The notes below the pieces were generated by a model that did no database searches, was not told the DNA's origin, and saw nothing but the letters and a program-made list of their open reading frames with translations. This document shows, in pieces, positions 47,402 to 63,874 of a stretch of 64,000 bases of DNA. Made by a program: the position numbers and the translations under genes. Within the stretch, counting starts at the first letter, position 1. Every line of letters begins with the position of its first letter. Source of the DNA: Bifidobacterium sp. ESL0800. Lineage in GTDB: Bacteria > Actinomycetota > Actinomycetes > Actinomycetales > Bifidobacteriaceae. Location of the stretch: positions 930,001 to 994,000 of the forward strand of contig NZ_CP113913.1 in assembly GCF_029395355.1 (NCBI RefSeq), given 5' to 3'.

Positions 47402-50400
47402 ATTTCAATCCACACCCCGTGAAGGGGCGACCCGGAAAAGGACCGCGACGGCATCACCTACCGCAAATTTCAATCCACGCCCCCCGTGGAGGGGCGACCC
47501 GAACCGCTCAAAGACCCTGAGACTGGCGAGATTTCAATCCTCGCCCCCAGTAGGGGCGACCTCGGTCTGACCGCCACGCCCGCGTGGGCCGACATATTTC
47601 AATCCACGCCCCCGTGGAGGGGCGACGGCTGCAGGCCGCGACCATGCGCCTCCGGCCGGAATTTCAATCCACGCCCCCGTGGAGGGGCGACTCATTATTT
47701 GGGGTGATTTGACGTGATTTACGATATTTCAATCCACGCCCCCGTGGAGGGGCGACACTGTACCTGGCCACGCCGGTGTTCAGCGTGCAATTTCAATCCA
47801 CGCCCCCGTGGAGGGGCGACCTCGACGAGGCGAAGCTCTGCTACCAGCACGGCATTTCAATCCACGCCCCCGTGGAGGGGCGACGTTCTGACGTTCCATC
47901 TTGTAGGCGCACATCTGCTGATTTCAATCCACGCCCCCCCCGTGGAGGGGCGACATGCCACGCCTTTGTTGAGGTCGCGTGGGTTTAGTATTTCAATCCA
48001 CGCCCCCGTGGAGGGGCGACCGGAGGATTTCGACCTGTTTCCATGAGCCTGACACATTTCAATCCACGCCCCCGTGGAGGGGCGACGACGCTGACCGGAT
48101 ACCCTTTCTCGTTCGACGCATTTCAATCCACGCCCCCCGTGGAGGGGCGACTTCGTACCGTAGTCGTTACCGTAATCGACTTGCTATTTCAATCCACGCC
48201 CCCCGTGGAGGGGCGACCCGACCCAATAAGCCAGGTAAGCATCAAAGGAAGATTTCAATCCACGCCCCCGTGGAGGGGCGACAAGCGGGCGACTTCGGGT
48301 ACACCGGCGACGATTGATTTCAATCCACGCCCCCCGTGGAGGGGCGACCGAAGCGTTCGCCGAACGGCGTGTCCTGTACGTTATTTCAATCCACGCCCCC
48401 CGTGGAGGGGCGACTCGTGACCATCGTCGCGGCCTTGTGCCGCTTCCTATTTCAATCCACGCCCCCGTGGAGGGGCGACGATGGTGGCGATCATACGTGC
48501 TGGCATTTCGCGGATTTCAATCCACGCCCCCCGTGGAGGGGCGACCTTACCTGACGTTACTTGACCGAGCTTTTCTGGACATTTCAATCCACGCCCCCCG
48601 TGGAGGGGCGACAACTGTTCCATCTGATAGTAAACGACACTTACGCATTTCAATCCACGCCCCCCGTGGAGGGGCGACCCGTGCGATGGTTCGTCTGCGT
48701 GACGGTTCGATATTTCAATCCACGCCCCCCGTGGAGGGGCGACTTCAGAACTGTTGCAGTCCGACAATTCGATCCTATTTCAATCCACGCCCCCCGTGGA
48801 GGGGCGACTCAAGAACGCCATCCGCTGGAACATCAGCAAGCTCATTTCAATCCACGCCCCCCGTGGAGGGGCGACCATTACCAGTCGGCACACCATCGGT
48901 CGTCTGATATTTCAATCCACGCCCCCCGTGGAGGGGCGACACGATAACGTGTATCCGTATGTCAAGACCATCAGTATTTCAATCCACGCCCCCCGTGGAG
49001 GGGCGACTCCGGCCCACGTTCGCCTACCATGACCATTCCGATTTCAATCCACGCCCCCCCGTGGAGGGGCGACATTATAGCTTAGAACATGCCGAGATAG
49101 GCGCCGAAATTTCAATCCACGCCCCCCGTGGAGGGGCGACATGGTTTCGCTCCTTTAAAGGTCAGCGCTCTTTTATTTCAATCCACGCCCCCCGTGGAGG
49201 GGCGACGAGTCACTTCAAGCGATGTCCAAGGATTGATCGAATTTCAATCCACGCCCCCCCCGTGGAGGGGCGACAATCTCGGCACGGACGAAAGCAGGTA
49301 GAAATGGATTTCAATCCACGCCCCCCGTGGAGGGGCGACGCCCAACGGAAGAAGACGTGTCATCGGAGCGTTATTTCAATCCACGCCCCCCGTGGAGGGG
49401 CGACCACCGTCCTCATGGCTCGACAACGAGCAATGGCTTATTTCAATCCACGCCCCCCGTGGAGGGGCGACACCGCCGCCGACACCACCGGAAGGATTGT
49501 TTAAATATTTCAATCCACGCCCCCCGTGGAGGGGCGACCGCCTTGAGGGCCGTGTCCAGCATGGGCGTTTGAATTTCAATCCACGCCCCCCGTGGAGGGG
49601 CGACCTTGTGCAAGTACCCAGTGGTGTTGGTGGCGAAATTTCAATCCACGCCCCCCGTGGAGGGGCGACGTTATCAGCCAAACGGACTGATAGAACGGGA
49701 TAATTTCAATCCACGCCCCCCGTGGAGGGGCGACATGGACACAACCGAACTCGTAGAGGCCATGCGTATTTCAATCCACGCCCCCCGTGGAGGGGCGACG
49801 CGCCTTGAGGGCCGTGTCCAGCATGGGCGTTTGAATTTCAATCCACGCCCCCCGTGGAGGGGCGACTCTTGAGGTCGAGCGGGCGCGACTGCGCATCCAT
49901 ATTTCAATCCACGCCCCCCGTGGAGGGGCGACCCCCTGATTTATCATCGTTGTGAGCGAGGTGATATTTCAATCCACGCCCCCCGTGGAGGGGCGACCCC
50001 CTGATTTATCATCGTTGTGAGCGAGGTGATATTTCAATCCACGCCCCCCGTGGAGGGGCGACTGTCCACCATATCGGCAGGGAGGCTCACAAACTTATTT
50101 CAATCCACGCCCCCCGTGGAGGGGCGACCTGGAATCGGTGGAAGTATTTATGTGACTTAGCATTTCAATCCACGCCCCCGTGGAGGGGCGACTCGTGCAG
50201 TATTTGGATACTTTGCATGCTCGTGATTTCAATCCACGCCCCCCGTGGAGGGGCGACCGTTTGCCTATGCTCCGTGTCTGCGATGTTCGGTATTTCAATC
50301 CACGCCCCCCGTGGAGGGGCGACGTCTAAAAACGCGGCCAAGGCCGTGGGGCTGAGTCAATTTCAATCCACGCCCCCCGTGGAGGGGCGACAAACACCTC

Positions 50401-51186
50401 GCCGCCAACAAGTAAGGGAGAACCCATTTCAATCCACGCCCCCCGTGGAGGGGCGACGAGCCCGATCCGTCATTATGCCTACAGGGGCCAGATTTCAATC
50501 CACGCCCCCCGTGGAGGGGCGACCGGCTGCCCTCGCATTGCACCGCACTTGCAAACTATTTCAATCCACGCCCCCCGTGGAGGGGCGACCACAGTGCCGT
50601 TGACGTTCGTGATCTTATCATTCAGATTTCAATCCACGCCCCCCGTGGAGGGGCGACTCAGCTTCTCCGCGTCCAATGTTCTCTTCGGAGTATTTCAATC
50701 CACGCCCCCCGTGGAGGGGCGACGACAGACTTCCCTTGGCAATAACAGCAGTACCTTTATTTCAATCCACGCCCCCCGTGGAGGGGCGACCTCGGCTCGG
50801 GTTTCCTTGATCTGGTCAAGCCGATTTCAATCCACGCCCCCCGTGGAGGGGCGACCAGGGACGCGCTCACCGGTGTCGGCAATGGCATGATTTCAATCCA
50901 CGCCCCCCGTGGAGGGGCGACATTAAAGTTTTGCTTACGGCAAATGGTCTGAATCAATTTCAATCCACGCCCCCCGTGGAGGGGCGACAAGAATCCGCCC
51001 GTGACCGATTCAAACAAGGCTGATTTCAATCCACGCCCCCCGTGGAGGGGCGACCCGCAGGCCCCACGGGCGGGCGCACGGTGAGGGTATTTCAATCCAC
51101 GCCCCCCGTGGAGGGGCGACAACGCACGTTATCGGTATTGGATGATTTGTCCACATTTCAATCCACGCCCCCCGTGGAGGGGCGAC
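47402..51186 (-). CRISPR. Type I-C CRISPR array, 58 repeats and 57 spacers
   Basis: Hand count of 58 repeats. On the plus strand each unit begins ATTTCAATCCACG, continues with a C tract and ends GTGGAGGGGCGAC. In crRNA orientation (minus strand) the repeat starts GTCGCCCC and ends ATTGAAAT, the type I-C 3' handle. Spacers are 32-36 nt. Most repeats are 32 nt (six C); ten are 31 nt, one 33 nt and two 34 nt, all differences falling in the hairpin loop. Repeats 1 (47402) and 3 (47531) are degenerate, 30 nt long, at the distal end. The leader end is at 51186, next to cas2. Spacers at 49539 and 49800 share 34 bases; those at 49933 and 49998 are identical. Confidence 0.98.
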
Positions 51187-51190
51187 TGCA

Positions 51191-51215
51191 ATTTTGGAAT
51201 CAAAGATTCCAAAAT
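51191..51215. repeat. Leader-end perfect hairpin
   Basis: ATTTTGGAATC (51191-51201), loop AAA, GATTCCAAAAT (51205-51215): 11 bp, perfect, ending four bases from the first repeat. On the minus strand it would be the 5' end of the pre-crRNA if the promoter at 51225-51233 is used. Confidence 0.8.
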
Positions 51216-51224
51216 GCGAACATC

Positions 51225-51233
51225 AGTATAGCA
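51225..51233 (-). promoter_or_regulatory. Candidate array promoter, extended -10
   Basis: On the minus strand TGCTATACT matches an extended -10 (TGn plus TATACT). The predicted start near 51218 is about 30 bases from the first repeat. The -35 is weak. It is the best promoter signal found in the leader. Confidence 0.5.
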
Positions 51234-51368
51234 ATTACCATACCTTGACGTTCAGCACGGTCATCTGAAAAGCCTTGGACAGCAATTTCCTGTCCAAATC
51301 ACTCTTTAATTATCAGCCGACTACCAGAATCAACGTTCCAGAAAACGATAATCTGGAAATTCTTTCAT

Positions 51369-51418
51369 AAAAAAGGTGCGAACCTACGGTAAAATACTGA
51401 GCTCTTCACTCTCGCACC
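51369..51418 (-). terminator. Intrinsic terminator of the cas operon
   Basis: On the minus strand GGTGCGA pairs with TCGCACC (51412-51418 with 51375-51381) and six T residues follow (51369-51374). The loop is about 30 bases. It lies 76 bases after the cas2 stop, and would separate cas and array transcripts. Confidence 0.65.
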
Positions 51419-51493: not shown

Positions 51494-51784
51494 TCAGACC
51501 ATCATGATCCCATCCGACGGTAAATGCCTTTGTCGCCCGACCTGCTCGATCCGATTCGAATATTTCGCTCCCAGATTGTAAAATCTCAGGCTATCGCATT
51601 CGACATCAATAATCTTCACCAATTCATTCTTCAACACCAACAAGTCTGAGGGTGAGACCAGGCATTCAAAGACGCTGTTCTGCACACGCTGCCCGAATTT
51701 GACGCACGCCTTCGCAACAAGTCGCAGCCGTCTTCTGCCCTGCGGAGTCTCCGTATTCACATCGTAGGCAACAACCACCATCAT
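51494..51784 (-). CDS. cas2: Cas2, spacer integration protein
   Basis: 96 aa, ferredoxin-like fold typical of Cas2. The first strand MMVVVAYDVNTET contains the conserved aspartate; RRRLRLVAKACVKFG and VQNSVFECLV follow. With Cas1 it forms the integrase complex that inserts new spacers at the leader end. It is the last gene of the cas operon, 12 bases after cas1, and the leader begins at its stop codon. Confidence 0.97.
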   Translation of the reverse strand: MMVVVAYDVNTETPQGRRRLRLVAKACVKFGQRVQNSVFECLVSPSDLLVLKNELVKIIDVECDSLRFYNLGAKYSNRIEQVGRQRHLPSDGIMMV

Positions 51785-51796
51785 CGCGAAGTCATC

Positions 51797-52828
51797 TCAC
51801 TTCCACATCAACGGCGGGTAGGCATCCAGATCTCCCCGAAGCGTCCGTACGAGCAGCAGCGCTTGCACATACGGCACCAGTCCCCACGTCATTTTCTCGT
51901 TCAAAAAAGGATGTGTCAGTTCCTCCATCTTACGTTTCTGCCAAGCCGTAAGAACCACTTTGCGCCCTTTATCGTTCAGGAAGATTCCGCCATTTTCGCG
52001 TTCCTCGAAATCCGCAGGTTTGATCGCCCCGGTGTTCACCATGCTCAGCACGAACCGATCGGCTACCACCGGACGCAATTCCTCCATCAGATCCAGCGCC
52101 AGTGAAACCCTACCCGGCCGATCAACATGCATGAAACCGACATATGGGTCGAGCCCGACACCTTGCAACGCTGCGGTACAGTCACTAGTAAGCAACGTGT
52201 ACACAAATGAAAGCAATGCGTTCAAACGATCCAAAGGCGGTCTTCGGCTTCTGACCTCAAAGAAGAAATCGTCTTTATTGCGTAGTATCAAATCGTCAAA
52301 CGCAAAGAAATAATCCTTCGCGGCATTTCCTTCCAATCCTCGTAACTCATCGATACGGGAACATCCACCGATCTGGCCAAGTGCAGAGTGCAACGCCGCG
52401 CTCTGCCCGGCCAGCCGTTCCACATTCACCCTCATAGCATGGTCTCGTTTCGTCCGTTCGAGGACCCAACGGCAGTTGAACACCTTCCCAGCGATAAAGG
52501 ATTTCGCTATCGGCAGGCTACGCTTTTCATCATCCGCAATCCGAAACTGTTGCCGGCGCAACAGCACATTTCGGTTCTTCTCCCCGAGAATCGAACAATA
52601 GTACCTGCCACGCGGAGAGAAAAACGAGACCGCGACTCCAAACTCGGCGCATTTGCCCATCAACGCCGGCGAAGCACCTTTGTAGCTGAAACAGAGAATC
52701 TGTTCAATCGAACGCAATGGTATGGACGCCAGCCGCTCATCCTTGTTCTGCACGACCACATTGTCGTCCTTCAACGAAAGGTATGCATCTTCAGAGAGAA
52801 CAAATAACGTATTTAGCAATTGTCGCAT
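51797..52828 (-). CDS. cas1: Cas1 integrase
   Basis: 343 aa, the type I-C Cas1 form. Sequence begins RQLLNTLFVLSEDAYLSLKDDNV, whose opening strand pattern is the N-terminal beta domain. The active-site helix domain includes EGNAAKDYFFAFDDL (metal-binding Glu) and GFMHVDRPGRVSLALDLMEE (His and Asp/Glu ligands). With Cas2 it cuts the leader-repeat junction and joins protospacers. All three metal-ligand regions are intact, so adaptation may be active. It starts 14 bases after cas4. Confidence 0.97.
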   Translation of the reverse strand: MRQLLNTLFVLSEDAYLSLKDDNVVVQNKDERLASIPLRSIEQILCFSYKGASPALMGKCAEFGVAVSFFSPRGRYYCSILGEKNRNVLLRRQQFRIADDEKRSLPIAKSFIAGKVFNCRWVLERTKRDHAMRVNVERLAGQSAALHSALGQIGGCSRIDELRGLEGNAAKDYFFAFDDLILRNKDDFFFEVRSRRPPLDRLNALLSFVYTLLTSDCTAALQGVGLDPYVGFMHVDRPGRVSLALDLMEELRPVVADRFVLSMVNTGAIKPADFEERENGGIFLNDKGRKVVLTAWQKRKMEELTHPFLNEKMTWGLVPYVQALLLVRTLRGDLDAYPPLMWK

Positions 52829-52842
52829 GAACTATCTCGCCC

Positions 52843-53562
52843 TCACTTTCCACCAGCAGCATCGTCGCTTATGCATTGCTGAATATAGGCTTTTGCAGAC
52901 TGCTTTCGGCCCAATTCCGGCAGACAAAGATTCCGCAACGAACAGGCATTGCACGACTTAGTGCGCCTAGCCTTGGGAGTATACCCACGTTGGTACATCT
53001 CGTGCATCTGGCAGGTCAGATTCACCACCTGATCGCGCAATGCGTCGTCAAGCTCCACCACCTCACGCCGTTTCGTCTCACGGTAGAACAACGCGCCCTC
53101 GGCAATGTCGCAGGCCAGCATCTCCTCCAGACACATTGCCTCGGCACACAGCTGCAACCTGTCCTCGTCTTTCGTCTTAGCGTGGCCATGTTTATACTCG
53201 ACTGGATAGGGTTTCCACTTGCCTTCGCGGCCATGCAGTGCGACGCCGTCGTCATCCTTGTGGAATTCGACGACATCGCAGATTCCTGTTATACCGACCT
53301 TCCGAGAAAACACGCGTAGGCTTCGTAGGATAAGCAGATCACCACGAGTCTCGGAATTCCCATAATCGTCGACTCGCTGATGCTCAATCTGGCCTGCCGT
53401 AGTACGCTCGTTCTCCTGCCATAGTTGCTCAATATGGATCAACGCCCACTGACGCTTGCAGAAGGCATAATGCTGAATGCCCGAAAGGGCCAGCCAATCA
53501 TCCTCGGGATAATCGGTTGACCCGTTCAGCAACTCACGGTAGCTCATTATGCTCACGGTCAT
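52843..53562 (-). CDS. cas4: Cas4 nuclease
   Basis: 239 aa from ATG 53562 (GGTGG upstream); GTG 53598 and ATG 53547 are other starts. The RecB-type nuclease core has YPVEYKHG, with the conserved Glu and Lys of the PD-(D/E)xK site. The iron-sulphur cluster ligands are one early Cys (YAFCKRQW) and three C-terminal ones (SCNACSLRNLC). Cas4 trims protospacers and fixes PAM orientation before Cas1-Cas2 integration. It is separated by only a short gap from cas7 and cas1. Confidence 0.95.
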   Translation of the reverse strand: MTVSIMSYRELLNGSTDYPEDDWLALSGIQHYAFCKRQWALIHIEQLWQENERTTAGQIEHQRVDDYGNSETRGDLLILRSLRVFSRKVGITGICDVVEFHKDDDGVALHGREGKWKPYPVEYKHGHAKTKDEDRLQLCAEAMCLEEMLACDIAEGALFYRETKRREVVELDDALRDQVVNLTCQMHEMYQRGYTPKARRTKSCNACSLRNLCLPELGRKQSAKAYIQQCISDDAAGGK

Positions 53563-53607
53563 GATGCGACGCCACCTATAGCAGGAATCACTCGGCACAT
53601 GGCGTAA

Positions 53608-54465
53608 TCACTGCCCATCGAGAATTTCATACTTTAGTCCTGAAATCTCGTCTGTGTTCACCTCGACCTTGACCTTATCGTTATTCGTATCCACTTTCAC
53701 CGAACGATGCACCTTCGCCGAAGAGTATTGGCCAGCCTTGCAGTCATGGGTAAACCAGACGACCTTCAATACCTCCATCGAACCCGAGGGACGCGCCGAA
53801 CTCTCGTCATTGACGAACAAAGTCAATAATGTCTTCTTGATTATTTCAGCATCTTCCTGGGAGAATCCGGTCTTTTCAGCAAGCTGAGGGCTGATGCTGC
53901 CCTTGGTCACGTAAACAGCCTTGCCCGAAATGCGGTACTTAGTGCCCATCGTGTCACTGGACTTCTTGCCATCATCCGTCGTTTCGCTATTCACTGATTT
54001 CGTGATCTGCACGCTATCGATGGCAACCGGCTCAGTAGAGAAAGCGGATTGAATCGACACCGGTCCACGGACCCCGATCGACACCCCCTCTGCCCCGGTA
54101 TCCTTCTTTTTAAAGGCAAATACCTGGCCGAAAGCACGCACATCAAACCACTGCTGACAAACCTTATCGAAAACCACGTCTCTGTTCTTCTGATCCTCTT
54201 TCGGAAGACCCTTAAGGAAATTGCCCAGCCTCTCGGATAAAGATTTGGCGCCATCATCAGCACGTTCTTGCATGCGGACGAAGATATTCTCACCCTCGTC
54301 CTGTGCACGATTGCGCATCTTACGCTTGATGGCCACATCGGATATCTCGCCTAAACCATCAGCAGTGGTCCTTGGACGATTGCCGCCCAGTGGATCACCA
54401 TTGGGATTGGCGTTTTCGACCCCCAAGACGACTACAAAATCAATCTTATTCTGCAAACTTTGCAT
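53608..54465 (-). CDS. cas7: Cas7 (Csd2), Cascade backbone
   Basis: 285 aa. It opens LQNKIDFVVVLGVENANPNGDP, the RAMP/Cas7 N-terminus of the Csd2 group, and keeps the glycine-rich GVRGPVSIQSAF segment. About seven copies coat the crRNA spacer in the type I-C complex. A perfect AAGGAG lies just upstream of ATG 54465, the strongest ribosome binding site in the operon, which fits its high stoichiometry. A 45-base gap separates it from cas8c. Confidence 0.97.
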   Translation of the reverse strand: MQSLQNKIDFVVVLGVENANPNGDPLGGNRPRTTADGLGEISDVAIKRKMRNRAQDEGENIFVRMQERADDGAKSLSERLGNFLKGLPKEDQKNRDVVFDKVCQQWFDVRAFGQVFAFKKKDTGAEGVSIGVRGPVSIQSAFSTEPVAIDSVQITKSVNSETTDDGKKSSDTMGTKYRISGKAVYVTKGSISPQLAEKTGFSQEDAEIIKKTLLTLFVNDESSARPSGSMEVLKVVWFTHDCKAGQYSSAKVHRSVKVDTNNDKVKVEVNTDEISGLKYEILDGQ

Positions 54466-54510
54466 TATTACTCCTTAATTGCTGTTGTTATTGCGTTATT
54501 GCTTATTCCA

Positions 54511-56400
54511 TCACTCGGATTCATTCAGCGGTTTCTTCTGCAGCTTCCTACGCTCGTGCGAATATCCCAGCAGATACAACGGCTGCAATGGTCGGTTGTC
54601 TTCATATTCGCCATCCTTAAATAACGACATGACCTCGTCAATGTCATTCTGAAACCACTGACTACCCTTGAGCGACTTTATATAAGGAACAAGCTGATCC
54701 ATGATGTTGCCCCACGTCGTGTAAGGTCTGGCGACGAAATTCGTCATAAGTTTCACTGCAGTCGTGGGCCTATCCGCCTTCTGTTTCCACAGCACGCCGC
54801 CCTCCAGATGATCCGCGAGCGCCAACAGTCGCCCATAAAGATAGTCCCTATCCTGACGTTGCTCATCCAATTCCACAGTTATTTCCTTCCCACTTTGTAT
54901 ATAGATTTTCTTCCAGATACTGCACACGACTTCAACGTCGTATCTCCATTTATTCTCCTTGTCGTAGCTGGTTGGACGGATGACGTTATTGAACGCCGCC
55001 TGCGCGAATTCACGCGGTAATGCCGAATTGCTGAACATCGATTGGATCAGTTGCTTCTGCACCTTGGTCTTCAAACGTGTATATGATGCGCCACTTCTTT
55101 CACCTGATCCATATACACAGTTGACGATGTCGAGATAGGAAGGAGCACCAAAATATTCCACCGGTCTCACGTGCTCAGACTCGTTTGTTTTGGCTTCCTG
55201 CGATGCAGACTCAAAGCGAATCAACGGCCACGTGGAATCCTCATGCCATTTTGCGATGCACTCCAGATAGTCTTTCTCAAGAAACTCCTGGTAGAACGTG
55301 AGACTTAGCCGACCCGAAGTCGCCGCATCAAAAATCGCGATGACGACCATCCGCGAATGGTCCCGCAACGTATCCGGCGAGCCGAATCCTCTGACTATCT
55401 GTCCAAACTTTCTGGCGTAATCGCTTCCGGTGTCCAGCCGTAGCTGACTGATACGTTCGGAATCGGTCAGATGCTCTTCAGCCGACTGCTCGACCTCATA
55501 TGAGTTGCCAAATGGAAGTGTCACATCAGGCATACCGCCAACGGCCCAGATCGTTATCGCTTGCTTATCGGTCAATGTACCATTATTCCTAATCAGCCAC
55601 TTTAAAGCGGCATGAACTTTTTGAGACGTAACCGAATCAATCCTGCTTGCTTCATCCACAGAGACAAAACGTCCATAAAACACGAAATTATGTTTACCCG
55701 CATCATTGGTTGAAATCAGTTTCGCGTTACCAGCTGTCCCAACGATATTCTTGGGATAATTCCCAGCCTGCCTATGGAAGTCGCCACCCAAGGCATCTTT
55801 CCCATCAGCCATCGTATCGTCGCTCTGCCGAGCTATCCACAATTCCCAAAGCCGTTTGTCTTCCCAGACGTTCTTCTCATCATCCTCCGGGATTCGTACC
55901 GAAAAGCGCACTCCGACCTTTTCCTCACCCTTGGGAAGCTTGACGAATCCATCTTCCTGAGATTCGTAGATATGCCGATCACACGCATCCTCGACAACGC
56001 TATGGCGACTCAAGTACTCATAGATCGCGTTGAGTTTGGGGTTATCGCCCTTCCAACTACTCAGTTGGCTCATATACGACTCAAACGCCTTCGGCTCCAA
56101 GGTGCTATCCACATATTTCAGTTGATCGCATAACGGATGAGGCTTCGGATCCATCCCAGACCGTCCCATCGACGCCTCAGTGCAAGGAGCGATAATCGTG
56201 ACAACATCCTTGTCCCTGGTGATGCTGATGCAATTGCCCTGGGCATCAAGCGTGACGTGCAAATTCGTTGGAATCGTTGTATGGAACAAAGGCAGCAAGG
56301 TTTTTTTGATTTGTGGATTGCCCTCCTTGTCCAGTGGCGCAACACCGGTTTTGTCTTGAATGGATCCATAGGTTTGCAACAGATTCGACCAAAGACTCAT
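54511..56400 (-). CDS. cas8c: Cas8c (Csd1), Cascade large subunit
   Basis: 629 aa, the Csd1 family length. The N-terminus [21 protein letters not shown] and the middle [34 protein letters not shown] are typical. Cas8c recognises the PAM and contacts the target strands. In other I-C systems a small subunit Cas11c is translated from the 3' end of the same gene. Here an internal AAGGAG at 54955-54960 lies in frame-neutral position 27 bases before GTG 54927, which would give about 138 residues. The start overlaps cas5c by four bases. Confidence 0.96.
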
Positions 56401-57110
56401 GATGCCTGCCCCTCTGCTTCGGCAAGGTTCCGGCCAATTTCGAACTTCCGAATCGGCTGATTCCCTCGAATGATATGCGAGTCAAGATCCGAAGAATCCG
56501 GACGCGGAAATTCAATGACACCATCGCTCATCACCGGCCGCCAAAATTGCGCTGTGAAATCATGATCGGGATTTTCGTCTGGATAGATGAACGAATGGAA
56601 CATGTATCCCATATCCATCTGGCCATATCCATCGTAGAAGCTCTCACCAGAACCAAATTCACACGGTTCCACGTAACCTTGACATTCACGGGTGCCGAGA
56701 AAGATGTCGCGTCTACCTCCAAGTTTTACGGCTCTTTTGGCGATGTTATGATGCTTGTTCTCGTTGCGATCGGCCGCAAGATCCTCGCGCTGCTCATTCC
56801 ATTCAAAATGCGCAAGCACCTGATAGCGCACATTCTTCAGATAGGTGTAGTACGACAAGTCATTACCGCCTTTGTATTTGATGGGGCGGATACCTTTGCT
56901 CTCGGTCTGGATACGGTTCATGACGCGAACGGCATCTATTCTCCAAATCAGCGTCGGCTTCCAGTAGACGCTTTCGGTAATGCCTTTCAACGCCTGATAG
57001 GTAGGAACCTGATAGGAGAATTTTTCACCTCCCGTCCGTGTCGCGACCTCTGAGAACAAGGCATAGGGTCCAAATACCTCGAATTCTATGGAATTGCGAT
57101 ATCGCTTCAT
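56397..57110 (-). CDS. cas5c: Cas5c, crRNA-processing nuclease
   Basis: 237 aa RAMP protein. It begins [21 protein letters not shown] and continues [20 protein letters not shown], both typical for Cas5d/Cas5c. In type I-C, which has no Cas6, Cas5c cuts the repeat RNA at the base of its hairpin. ATG 57110 directly follows the cas3 stop (TGA then ATG); the end overlaps cas8c by four bases, so the three genes are translationally coupled. [21 protein letters not shown] is the region expected to hold the catalytic Tyr/Lys/His-type residues. Confidence 0.96.
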
Positions 57111-59561
57111 TCAGCACCTCGATTCTTTATCGACCATTAGCAATGGCATCTCTATGTCGAGCACTACGCCATACCCTTCTTTATAGTGATCTTTATTCAA
57201 TTGCCACACATTGAAATCCTTATTGACAAGATCCAAAGCACCCTGCTTATCCAGCTTCTGAAACTCATAGTCAAAAAGCGATACCGAATAATCCTGTAGT
57301 TTCCGAAGGGCTTTGATTTGTTGCCGGATATCGCCATGACGCAACAAATCAATCCACTTATCACTGTCTTGGTAATAAACTACGACACTTTTGGTCATGT
57401 CGGGAATTACATGGAAATGGTCGCTGACTGTCTTGAACGACTGCGCCAGACAATGCGTATAGCTCTGATTATCCGCATGTTCGGAATACAATGCTCTCGC
57501 CGAACGATTGACCGACAGCAAATCATAAGCTGTCTTCTTGCCGGGCATAGGATAATCCATTCTGCCGCCCTTGCTACGTTCATGGAAATATTCTCGGTAG
57601 AACGCGTCAAGCATATCTTTGGATTGCAGGTCTGCCTTAGGATAATCATGCAGCAACCCCAGAGTAATCTCCTTCCCTATAGCTATGTCCTGAAGCTTGC
57701 TCAGTCCAGACTCGTTGGCGATTGGATAGACATAAACGTTCTTCGGGGTTTCCGACTCTCCACTACGATTGCAGCGTCCTGCAGCCTGCAGAATGCTATC
57801 CAACCCAGCCATCGCCCTCACTACGCAGGCAAAGGACACATCGACGCCGGCCTCGATAAGTTGAGTACTGATACAGATAACCGGCTTGCCCTTATAGGTT
57901 TCTCCCTTCCGGATGCAGTCGTTGACGGGATTTAAAAGGGTTTCCATCCTTTCAATTTGATCGCGTCGATGCCTGCCACACATCGACGTACTCAAATGAA
58001 TAACTTCGCATTCTTGTGCCCGTTGGTCTTCCATCACGCGTTCGTAGATTCTTCGAGCTTCGGATTTCAGGTTGACGATAGCCAGACAGCTTCCATCTTC
58101 CAACGCCAATTGAAGAACACGGTCGGCCACTTCTTCAACGGATTTTTCATCAGCCGATGCCACGATATTCGTTCTACGCAACCGTTCTCGATAGCCTTCG
58201 GATTCGGAAATCAAATCCGGTTCCTTGGAAATCAATAGATTCTTTCGCTCAGTCGACTCGAGAGGAGGCTGTGTAGCAGTACACAACAGAATGGTGGAAT
58301 TCAATATCTTCGCGAGGAAACTGACAACTTCATCGAACAAATGGATTGTATTGATTGGCAACGCCTGAATCTCATCGAAGACAATGACACTGTCCGCCAT
58401 ATTGTGGAACTTTCGCAAATCGGTACCGTGCGAAGACATCACCGTCTCCAAGAACTGCACCATGGTCGTCACGACAACCGGATTATCCCACCGCTGCGCT
58501 GCTTCTTGCCGTTTTTTCTCACGTTCATCGCGCTCCTGCTCGGACATCCCTTTTTGCTCGCCTTGATTGGCTGCGCTGGAATAGTGTTCCAATAACGTAT
58601 CGTCATCGTCAGCCAGATCGAGGAACTTTCTCAGGTCCCGTGATGTCTGAGTGGTAATGGACAAATAGGGAATCACATAGATGATATGCGATTTGCCTGT
58701 TTGCTGCGCATGGTGAAGAGCGAAACGGAACGAGGCCAACGTCTTCCCGCCGCCAGTGGGCACGGAAAGACGATAGATTCCAGTTGGCCTTGCACTGGAG
58801 TCAAGACACTGCTGCGAGATTCGAGCCCTGATCTGATTGACTTTTGATGTATTGTCGAACCCGCCAAGATGCGACTCGAATCGTTCAATAAGGTCAGTCC
58901 AGTCAGGTTTACGACTTTGTTCCTTTTCGCCTTGGTTGAAGCACGCAGTGTCCAATCGATCGGCATCAATCAGTCGTGAGTAAATATACTTGGTATAGAG
59001 TCCCATGGCAAAATACAACGAGTTCTGACGATGGGCACCACCGTAACCATTACTCATTGCTGCGTCTATGAATGTCTTGGAATCGGTTGCTGCGACATTA
59101 AAGGAGCTCTCCAAATCCAAATCCAGTTTTCTAAGGTTTTGCTTGACCTCGTCAAAATGATAACGTTCATCCCGTTGCCGAGCATCAGTCATTGTGTCGA
59201 AGAAACAACTGCTCCCATCCGGACTTAGATAATCAGGCAAATCACCGTGATGCTTTGCGATCACTCCTTCGAGAATTTCCTGCGTCAGCATCTGGTACTG
59301 ATCCTTGACGGGAAAATGAGCACTCACAAAAGCACCCTGCAACGCGTGGACGATATCACCTCTTTTAGCGTCGCCATGAATCAGATAGCTCTGGAAACAC
59401 TCTGTCGCCTTTCCGACGTCATGTAGATATCCAGCTAAAAATGCGATATCTTCAAATCTATCTTCGAAATGCTTTGAAAATTGAGCAGTATTTGACAGAT
59501 GCTCTTTCAACGTTTGCTTACGACTATGATCATCATTAATATGCGCGAGTAAAGCATCCAT
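57111..59561 (-). CDS. cas3: Cas3 helicase-nuclease
   Basis: 816 aa from ATG 59561, chosen because AAGGGG lies eight bases upstream; GTG 59570 is too near that site. The N-terminal HD nuclease is shown by GYLHDVGKAT. The SF2 helicase has Walker A SVPTGGGKT, motif II VIFDEIQAL and STQLIEAGVDVSF, with QAAGRCNRSGE as motif VI. Cas3 is recruited by Cascade to unwind and cut target DNA. All motifs are intact. It is the first gene of the operon, with a candidate -10 TATTCT at 59595-59600. Confidence 0.97.
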   Translation of the reverse strand: MDALLAHINDDHSRKQTLKEHLSNTAQFSKHFEDRFEDIAFLAGYLHDVGKATECFQSYLIHGDAKRGDIVHALQGAFVSAHFPVKDQYQMLTQEILEGVIAKHHGDLPDYLSPDGSSCFFDTMTDARQRDERYHFDEVKQNLRKLDLDLESSFNVAATDSKTFIDAAMSNGYGGAHRQNSLYFAMGLYTKYIYSRLIDADRLDTACFNQGEKEQSRKPDWTDLIERFESHLGGFDNTSKVNQIRARISQQCLDSSARPTGIYRLSVPTGGGKTLASFRFALHHAQQTGKSHIIYVIPYLSITTQTSRDLRKFLDLADDDDTLLEHYSSAANQGEQKGMSEQERDEREKKRQEAAQRWDNPVVVTTMVQFLETVMSSHGTDLRKFHNMADSVIVFDEIQALPINTIHLFDEVVSFLAKILNSTILLCTATQPPLESTERKNLLISKEPDLISESEGYRERLRRTNIVASADEKSVEEVADRVLQLALEDGSCLAIVNLKSEARRIYERVMEDQRAQECEVIHLSTSMCGRHRRDQIERMETLLNPVNDCIRKGETYKGKPVICISTQLIEAGVDVSFACVVRAMAGLDSILQAAGRCNRSGESETPKNVYVYPIANESGLSKLQDIAIGKEITLGLLHDYPKADLQSKDMLDAFYREYFHERSKGGRMDYPMPGKKTAYDLLSVNRSARALYSEHADNQSYTHCLAQSFKTVSDHFHVIPDMTKSVVVYYQDSDKWIDLLRHGDIRQQIKALRKLQDYSVSLFDYEFQKLDKQGALDLVNKDFNVWQLNKDHYKEGYGVVLDIEMPLLMVDKESRC

Positions 59562-59570
59562 CTCGATCAC

Positions 59571-63824: not shown

Positions 63825-63874
63825 AAAAGGGTTGTGGTCAACCGATGATGACACCGGTTGACCACAACCCTTTT
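63825..63874. terminator. Bidirectional terminator, perfect 19-bp stem
   Basis: The arms 63825-63843 and 63856-63874 are perfect 19-bp complements around a 12-base loop, with A-rich and T-rich ends (AAAAGGG, CCCTTTT). It lies between convergent genes, the second DsbA-like gene and the partial gene at the window end, and should stop both transcripts. Confidence 0.85.

What the first reader, a model, noticed from the sequence alone, without database searches (positions are those of the whole stretch)
51187..51233. Leader-end hairpin at the first repeat
A perfect 11-bp palindrome ends four bases from the first repeat and would form the 5' end of pre-crRNA if the extended -10 at 51225-51233 is used. 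No IHF-type site was sought successfully; the palindrome could anchor Cas1-Cas2-Cas4 integration, protect the transcript or set its first cut.
Basis: partly seen in the sequence, partly recalled or inferred. Interest (0 to 1): 0.65.

Follow-up and report, generated by a model that had tools for sequence, protein, structure and literature searches.

The report
Hairpin starting the bifidobacterial CRISPR transcript
Just before this bacterium's CRISPR array lies a palindrome that would fold into a hairpin at the very start of the CRISPR RNA, and related bacteria keep such a hairpin at the same place although its letters have changed, so it is probably a functional RNA element that has not been described for this CRISPR type.

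Summary
The palindrome is real: 51191-51201/51205-51215, perfect 11-bp arms, 3-nt loop, 4 nt from the first repeat of a complete type I-C locus, unique in its 2.25-Mb genome. It is the window's version of a family-wide feature. In 24 non-redundant Bifidobacteriaceae I-C leaders the last 50 nt fold unusually well (mean z -2.70, against about -0.4 further upstream and -0.47 in I-E leaders of the same family). The arms covary: cognate arms pair far better than arms swapped between species. The hairpin's 5' base lies 12-13 nt after the first T of a -10 hexamer, i.e. at the predicted +1, whether the -10 is near -44 (short form, as here) or near -62 (long form). So the whole predicted 5' UTR of the pre-crRNA is one hairpin ending just before repeat 1. 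Best reading: a 5'-terminal RNA hairpin, most likely protecting the transcript's 5' end. The function is inferred; no transcript was mapped. Its 3' arm also holds fixed-position bases (CCA -11..-9, TGC -4..-2) that look like an integrase motif. A separate upstream block, helically phased at about 10.6 bp to the repeat, is a better candidate integration anchor than the palindrome.

The parts
51191..51215 (-). Perfect 11-bp palindrome, ATTTTGGAATC-TTT-GATTCCAAAAT on the transcribed strand
   Evidence: unique in the genome
51188..51217 (-). Predicted RNA hairpin (13 bp, one bulge, -13.8 kcal/mol) filling the predicted 5' UTR; its structure is kept across Bifidobacteriaceae I-C leaders
51187..51190 (-). 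Leader end TGCA next to repeat 1; the TGC of it is conserved by sequence (G -3 in 21/24, C -2 in 22/24 leaders)
51195..51197 (-). CCA within the 3' arm at -11..-9, conserved by sequence at fixed distance from the repeat (C -10 and A -9 in 21/24)
51218..51218 (-). Predicted transcription start (12 nt after the first T of the -10), +/-2 nt; not mapped experimentally
   Evidence: inferred
51225..51233 (-). Extended -10 promoter element TGCTATACT, first T of the hexamer at -44 from the repeat ('short' class)
51155..51186 (-). First (leader-proximal) CRISPR repeat, type I-C
   Evidence: the array runs 47467-51186 with 56 copies of the repeat core
51376..51417 (-). Conserved upstream leader block GTGCGA...TTCGCAC (inverted repeat, rigid 35/36 bp spacing), phased to the helix relative to the repeat; proposed integration-complex site
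51494..51784 (-). cas2, whose stop codon bounds the leader
   Evidence: TIGR01573
51797..52828 (-). cas1c, used to fetch the related leaders
   Evidence: TIGR03640, 456 bits, cut-off 385

Best explanation
It is a 5'-terminal RNA hairpin of the type I-C pre-crRNA. RNA polymerase starting from the extended -10 at 51233-51225 would begin at about 51218, so the transcript's first ~30 nt fold into the hairpin and the first repeat's own hairpin follows a few nt later. In relatives the same hairpin is either short (about 32 nt) or long (about 50 nt, up to -29 kcal/mol), from the predicted +1 to just before repeat 1. Shown by comparison: pairing is maintained while sequence changes, and the hairpin start tracks the predicted promoter. 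Inferred: selection acts on the RNA. Inferred, least certain: the hairpin caps the 5' end against 5'-end-dependent decay (the host has RNase J and RNase E/G homologues), stabilising the long pre-crRNA until Cas5c cuts it. Part of the 3' arm doubles as the leader-end DNA motif next to the integration site.
For: Leader-end folding: 24 non-redundant leaders, mean z -2.70, 67% at p<=0.05 against 13% of upstream windows; I-E leaders of the same family -0.47. On the exact predicted UTR all 22 classifiable leaders have z <= -1.9, 19 of 22 at p<=0.05, combined p 1.4e-19 (relatedness not corrected). Arms covary: cognate arms -14.5 kcal/mol against -7.7 swapped in the long class (p 5e-5), -9.7 against -7.2 in the short class (p 0.0025); on the transcribed strand three of four control pairings show no effect at p<0.05. 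Pair counts on the short class: 8 cells changed on both sides, 0/500 shuffles reach this. TANNNT lies 11-15 nt before the hairpin start, peak -12/-13, in 18/24 leaders (permuted mean 8.1, p 5e-5). Extending the leader from 33 to 51 nt gains 0.0 kcal/mol (short) against -13.7 (long), complete separation, p 4e-5. The two classes need two changes on the Cas1 tree. Composition-corrected folding favours the transcribed strand in 16/22 (p 0.0016). RNase J and RNase E/G homologues present.
Against: No TSS or RNA was mapped; -10 calls rest on a loose TANNNT motif, and a first attempt with 70-nt folds gave only a weak match (r 0.38, 52% within 4 nt, permutation p 0.003). The transcribed-strand advantage in raw energy is not specific: every leader window shows it, and the G.T over A.C excess in stems is not significant (36:12, p 0.10). 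Some relatives (L051 group, L057) have weak or displaced stems. Distant I-C leaders mostly lack it (15% at p<=0.05), so it is not required for I-C function. Fixed-position bases show that a DNA motif overlaps it. In the pair count the +1 slide has more doubly changed cells (13) than the structure itself (8), although far fewer cells pair (43% against 81%).
Confidence: 0.5

Rival explanations
1. DNA-level site: the palindrome is a recognition or bending element for the Cas4-Cas1-Cas2 integrase or a host DNA-bending protein at the leader-repeat junction, acting as duplex or extruded cruciform.
For: G at -23 (22/24), CCA at -11..-9 and TGC at -4..-2 keep their sequence and distance to the repeat in both classes. 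Integration happens at this junction, and a 10-bp leader was used to assemble the B. halodurans I-C complex (PMC6519985), so bases near the junction matter. I-F leaders carry conserved inverted-repeat motifs contacted by Cas2 (PMC12259127).
Against: Arm sequence and spacing vary widely while pairing is kept, which a fixed protein dimer site does not predict. The hairpin start tracks the predicted promoter rather than a fixed distance from the repeat. The upstream block phased to the helix already looks like the integrase or bending site.
Confidence: 0.25
2. Mutational by-product: imperfect inverted repeats are made perfect by template switching during replication or gap repair after spacer integration (quasipalindrome correction), giving covarying arms without selection.
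For: Close relatives (L003, L005) have the same palindrome with mismatches or G.T steps, as a correction event would give. Template switching that homogenises arms is documented (PMC8604942, PMC7202029, abstracts). The junction is repaired at every acquisition (general knowledge).
Against: Does not explain why the hairpin begins at the predicted +1 in both classes, why it persists across the family, or why I-E leader ends, repaired in the same way, lack it.
Confidence: 0.13
3. Operator: a palindromic repressor or activator site overlapping the pre-crRNA start.
For: Palindrome directly downstream of the -10.
Against: No second copy in the genome with up to 3 mismatches, and the sequence differs between species while pairing stays.
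Confidence: 0.05
4. Leader-repeat hairpin that blocks processing of the first repeat, as in II-A and Cas13 systems.
For: Same general place; such hairpins are established in II-A and type VI (PMC13187072).
Against: The hairpin is self-contained and leaves the repeat stem intact (probability 0.961 with UTR, 0.968 without). In class 1 systems the extraneous crRNA comes from the last repeat (PMC13187072).
Confidence: 0.03

Closest known systems
Leader-repeat hairpins of type II-A and type VI (Cas13) arrays (PMC13187072; Liao et al. 2022 as cited there)
   Same: A conserved hairpin in the transcribed leader next to repeat 1, found by structure conservation
   Different: There the leader pairs with the first repeat and blocks its processing to stop extraneous crRNA. 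Here the hairpin is self-contained, leaves the repeat free, and class 1 systems make the extraneous crRNA at the other end
RNA structures upstream of the first repeat in type II-C arrays (PMC12080349)
   Same: Enriched RNA structure directly upstream of repeat 1
   Different: In II-C these are Rho-independent terminators or pair with the ecrRNA guide. Here there is no U-run, and the stem starts at the predicted +1 of the array's own promoter
5'-terminal stabilising stem-loops of bacterial transcripts (ompA-type; general knowledge, not looked up)
   Same: Stem-loop at or within a few nt of +1, expected to hinder 5'-end-dependent RNases
   Different: Not known to me from CRISPR transcripts; stability not measured here
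Leader motifs phased to the helix in CRISPR adaptation (Santiago-Frangos et al. 2021, seen only as a reference in PMC12259127; paper not held)
   Same: The separate GTGCGA...TTCGCAC block is phased to the repeat
   Different: I-C block, GTGCGAA-N28-TTCGCAC; I could not check whether that paper covers I-C

Membership tests
Type I-C CRISPR-Cas locus | cas3-cas5c-cas8c-cas7-cas4-cas1-cas2 gene set with type-specific members | tested here: met
   Cas1c, Cas5c and Cas7/Csd2 over their cut-offs; Cas8c/Csd1 214.6 bits, just under its cut-off of 218.65; cas3 core, cas4 and cas2 over cut-off
Type I-C CRISPR-Cas locus | I-C repeat ending ...GTGGATTGAAAT, leader between cas2 and repeat 1 | tested here: met
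Leader-repeat hairpin (II-A/VI type) | Leader RNA base-pairs with the first repeat and disrupts its fold | tested here: not met
Leader-repeat hairpin (II-A/VI type) | Extraneous crRNA arises from the first repeat | not testable with these tools
   Literature places class 1 ecrRNA at the last repeat (PMC13187072); no RNA data here
Conserved structured RNA element | Folding stability above shuffled sequence across relatives | tested here: met
Conserved structured RNA element | Compensatory change of paired positions | tested here: met
   the +1 slide control is not beaten on every measure
Conserved structured RNA element | Selection specific to the transcribed strand | tested here: inconclusive
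   composition-corrected p 0.0016, but G.T against A.C p 0.10 and raw bias in all windows
5'-terminal stabilising stem-loop | Stem begins at or near +1 | tested here: met
   by promoter prediction only; TSS not mapped
5'-terminal stabilising stem-loop | Loss of the stem shortens transcript half-life | not testable with these tools
   needs experiment
Intrinsic terminator | G+C-rich stem followed by U-run | tested here: not met
   AT-rich stem followed by TTGCAGTCGC
Known Rfam RNA family | Match over gathering score | tested here: not met
   only sub-threshold matches, on the CRISPR repeats and array; none on the leader hairpin
IHF-type leader | IHF consensus site in the leader | tested here: inconclusive
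   one 1-mismatch match in the leader at 51311-51323; the match count in the window is at chance level

The most novel reading that the evidence does not exclude
A lineage of type I-C systems has turned the leader end into a dual-code element. The 3' arm is the DNA sequence read by the integrase, and a 5' arm placed exactly at the transcription start coevolves to pair with it. Every pre-crRNA then begins with a hairpin that protects it or tunes its amount. This would be a new class of CRISPR leader RNA element in class 1 systems, unrelated to extraneous-crRNA suppression.
Probability: 0.3. Interest if true: 0.7.

Novelty: new variant of a known kind. Interest (0 to 1): 0.55.

Why it matters
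Leader RNAs with conserved hairpins are described for class 2 systems, where they block the first repeat. A conserved hairpin that starts at +1 of class 1 pre-crRNA, and does something else, would show that crRNA supply in type I systems is set partly by the structure of the transcript's 5' end. It is directly testable in a bifidobacterium or in a plasmid reporter. The accompanying block phased to the helix makes I-C adaptation open to simple spacing tests.

Tried and rejected
Repeat insulation: the real UTR gives no better first-repeat folding than shuffled UTRs. Raw sense-over-antisense stability as proof of RNA: it also holds in control windows, so withdrawn. A first promoter-hairpin correlation with 70-nt folds was weak and was replaced by a hairpin start taken as the commonest over many window lengths. 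An operator with other genomic copies: none. Terminator: no U-run. Plasmid DNA relatives of the leader: none. Rfam: nothing over threshold. Searches were argument errors and one search returned no paper; they added no evidence. The literature searches found no description of a type I-C leader-end hairpin, but most subscription papers are not in the library.

Full report
Observation. The palindrome is at the stated place: arms 51191-51201 and 51205-51215, perfectly complementary over 11 bp with 3 nt between, four bases from the first repeat at 51155-51186. With up to three mismatches it occurs once in the 2,250,646-base genome. Only three perfect inverted repeats with arms of at least 11 and loops of at most 10 occur in the window. 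Genes 51494-59570 on the - strand are cas2, cas1c, cas4, cas7, cas8c, cas5c and cas3 of a type I-C system. The array reads on the - strand from repeat 1 at 51186 down to 47467 (56 copies of the repeat core), so the palindrome is the last part of the leader.

Relatives. Cas1 searches over the genus (20 of 112 genomes), family (32 of 189), order, phylum and two narrower groups, genome contigs and plasmids (regions) gave 65 distinct I-C leaders. A search with the I-E Cas1 family gave 25 I-E leaders of the same family as controls. Two further bifidobacterial I-C leaders at contig ends (L005, L007) were added by hand. After removing leaders more than 75% alike over the last 60 nt, 24 Bifidobacteriaceae I-C, 10 other close I-C, 27 distant I-C and 20 I-E leaders were compared.

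Structure conservation. The last 50 nt of Bifidobacteriaceae I-C leaders fold far better than dinucleotide shuffles (mean z -2.70; 67% at p<=0.05). Windows further upstream give -0.1 to -0.6, I-E leader ends -0.47, distant I-C leader ends -0.60 and the 10 intermediate I-C leaders -1.32. The stems differ in sequence: for example -27.9 kcal/mol in L009, and stems in L016, L059, L065 and L080 that share few letters with the window's. Arms taken from the same species pair much better than arms swapped between species: long class -14.5 against -7.7 kcal/mol, p 5e-5; short class -9.7 against -7.2, p 0.0025. On the transcribed strand three of the four control pairings show no effect; one, the upstream -75..-58 segment in the long class, has p 0.028. 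On the short-class alignment 81% of cells pair and 8 cells are changed on both sides, which 0 of 500 shuffles reach; the +1 slide, with 13 such cells but only 43% paired, is a weak point of that table.

Link to transcription. Leaders fall into two classes by the position of a TANNNT hexamer: 43-47 nt (short, including the window's TATACT at 44) or 60-64 nt (long) before the repeat. The hairpin's first paired base is near -31 in the short class and near -50 in the long class, i.e. about 12-13 nt after the hexamer's first T, where +1 is expected. With hairpin starts found without reference to the promoter, TANNNT lies 11-15 nt upstream in 18 of 24 leaders (8.1 expected by permutation, p 5e-5). 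Lengthening the folded leader end from 33 to 51 nt adds nothing (median) in the short class and -13.7 kcal/mol in the long class, with no overlap. On a Cas1 tree the two classes need two changes, so promoter and hairpin shifted together more than once. On the exact predicted UTR, all 22 classifiable leaders have z of -1.9 or lower.

RNA or DNA. Composition-corrected folding is stronger on the transcribed strand in 16 of 22 leaders (p 0.0016), but G.T exceeds A.C only at p 0.10. The raw-energy strand difference occurs in every leader window and was discarded. DNA-level constraint is also present: at fixed distances from the repeat, G -23, C -10, A -9, G -3 and C -2 are kept in 21 or 22 of 24 leaders. 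I therefore read the element as an RNA hairpin whose 3' arm overlaps a leader-end DNA motif.

Function. The first repeat's stem forms with or without the UTR (0.961 against 0.968 in the window), so the hairpin neither blocks nor insulates it. Extraneous-crRNA suppression, the role of leader hairpins in II-A and Cas13 systems, does not apply: class 1 systems make that RNA from the last repeat (PMC13187072). There is no U-run, so it is not a terminator. A stem at +1 is, from general knowledge, the classical arrangement that slows 5'-end-dependent decay, and the genome encodes homologues of RNase J and RNase E/G. Protection of the pre-crRNA 5' end is the mechanism I commit to, as inference.

Integration anchor. 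A TTCGCAC block is present in 29 non-redundant leaders whose Cas1 is at least 50% identical to the window's; in 27 of them a GTGCGA partner stands at a rigid 35/36 bp upstream (window 51376-51417). Its distance to the repeat ranges from 112 to 250 bp, yet follows the helical repeat: best period 10.55 bp, R 0.70, 0 of 2000 random sets as high. For 12 distinct distances the best period is 10.60, R 0.75, scan-corrected p 0.0008. That is expected of a site that must face the integration complex.

Verdict. A structure-conserved 5'-terminal hairpin in class 1 pre-crRNA appears undescribed in the papers I could search. It is a new variant of a known kind (CRISPR leader RNA hairpins), with function still inferred.

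Noticed in passing
51376-51417 (- strand) and the same block in other I-C leaders: Inverted-repeat block GTGCGA...TTCGCAC (35/36 bp apart, AAGCnCTCAT inside) shared by I-C leaders of Bifidobacteriaceae, Coriobacteriia and Bacillota; its distance to repeat 1 (112-250 bp) is phased at 10.55-10.60 bp. Possibly the main integrase or bending site of I-C leaders.
   Followed up: partly
51310-51316 (- strand CTGATAA), IHF-like 1-mismatch match at 51311-51323: A [TC]TGA[TA]AA element recurs at -101 to -156 in many bifidobacterial I-C leaders and resembles an IHF core; IHF-like matches in the window as a whole are at chance level.
   Followed up: partly
51275-51297: Second leader inverted repeat TTGGACAGGAA-A-TTGCTGTCCAA (10 of 11 paired); the same letters TTGGACAG...CTGTCCAA form the leader-end hairpin of relative L009.
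   Followed up: no
distant I-C leaders, e.g. L138 (Nitratidesulfovibrio vulgaris plasmid): Instead of one block they carry two GGTTCGCG copies at about -142 and -53 from the repeat.
   Followed up: no
L037 (Oscillospiraceae), L039 (Eubacterium), L096, L101: Leader-end hairpins also occur outside Bifidobacteriaceae, e.g. 12 perfect bp abutting the repeat in L037, with TAATTT 13 nt upstream of the stem; possibly independent origins.
   Followed up: partly
L051, L054, L062, L064, L066: One branch of the family seems to have lost or rearranged the leader-end hairpin (small stems instead); a natural test group.
   Followed up: no
63825-63874: Perfect 20-bp inverted repeat with 10-nt loop beginning AAAA and ending TTTT, probably a bidirectional terminator.
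   Followed up: no
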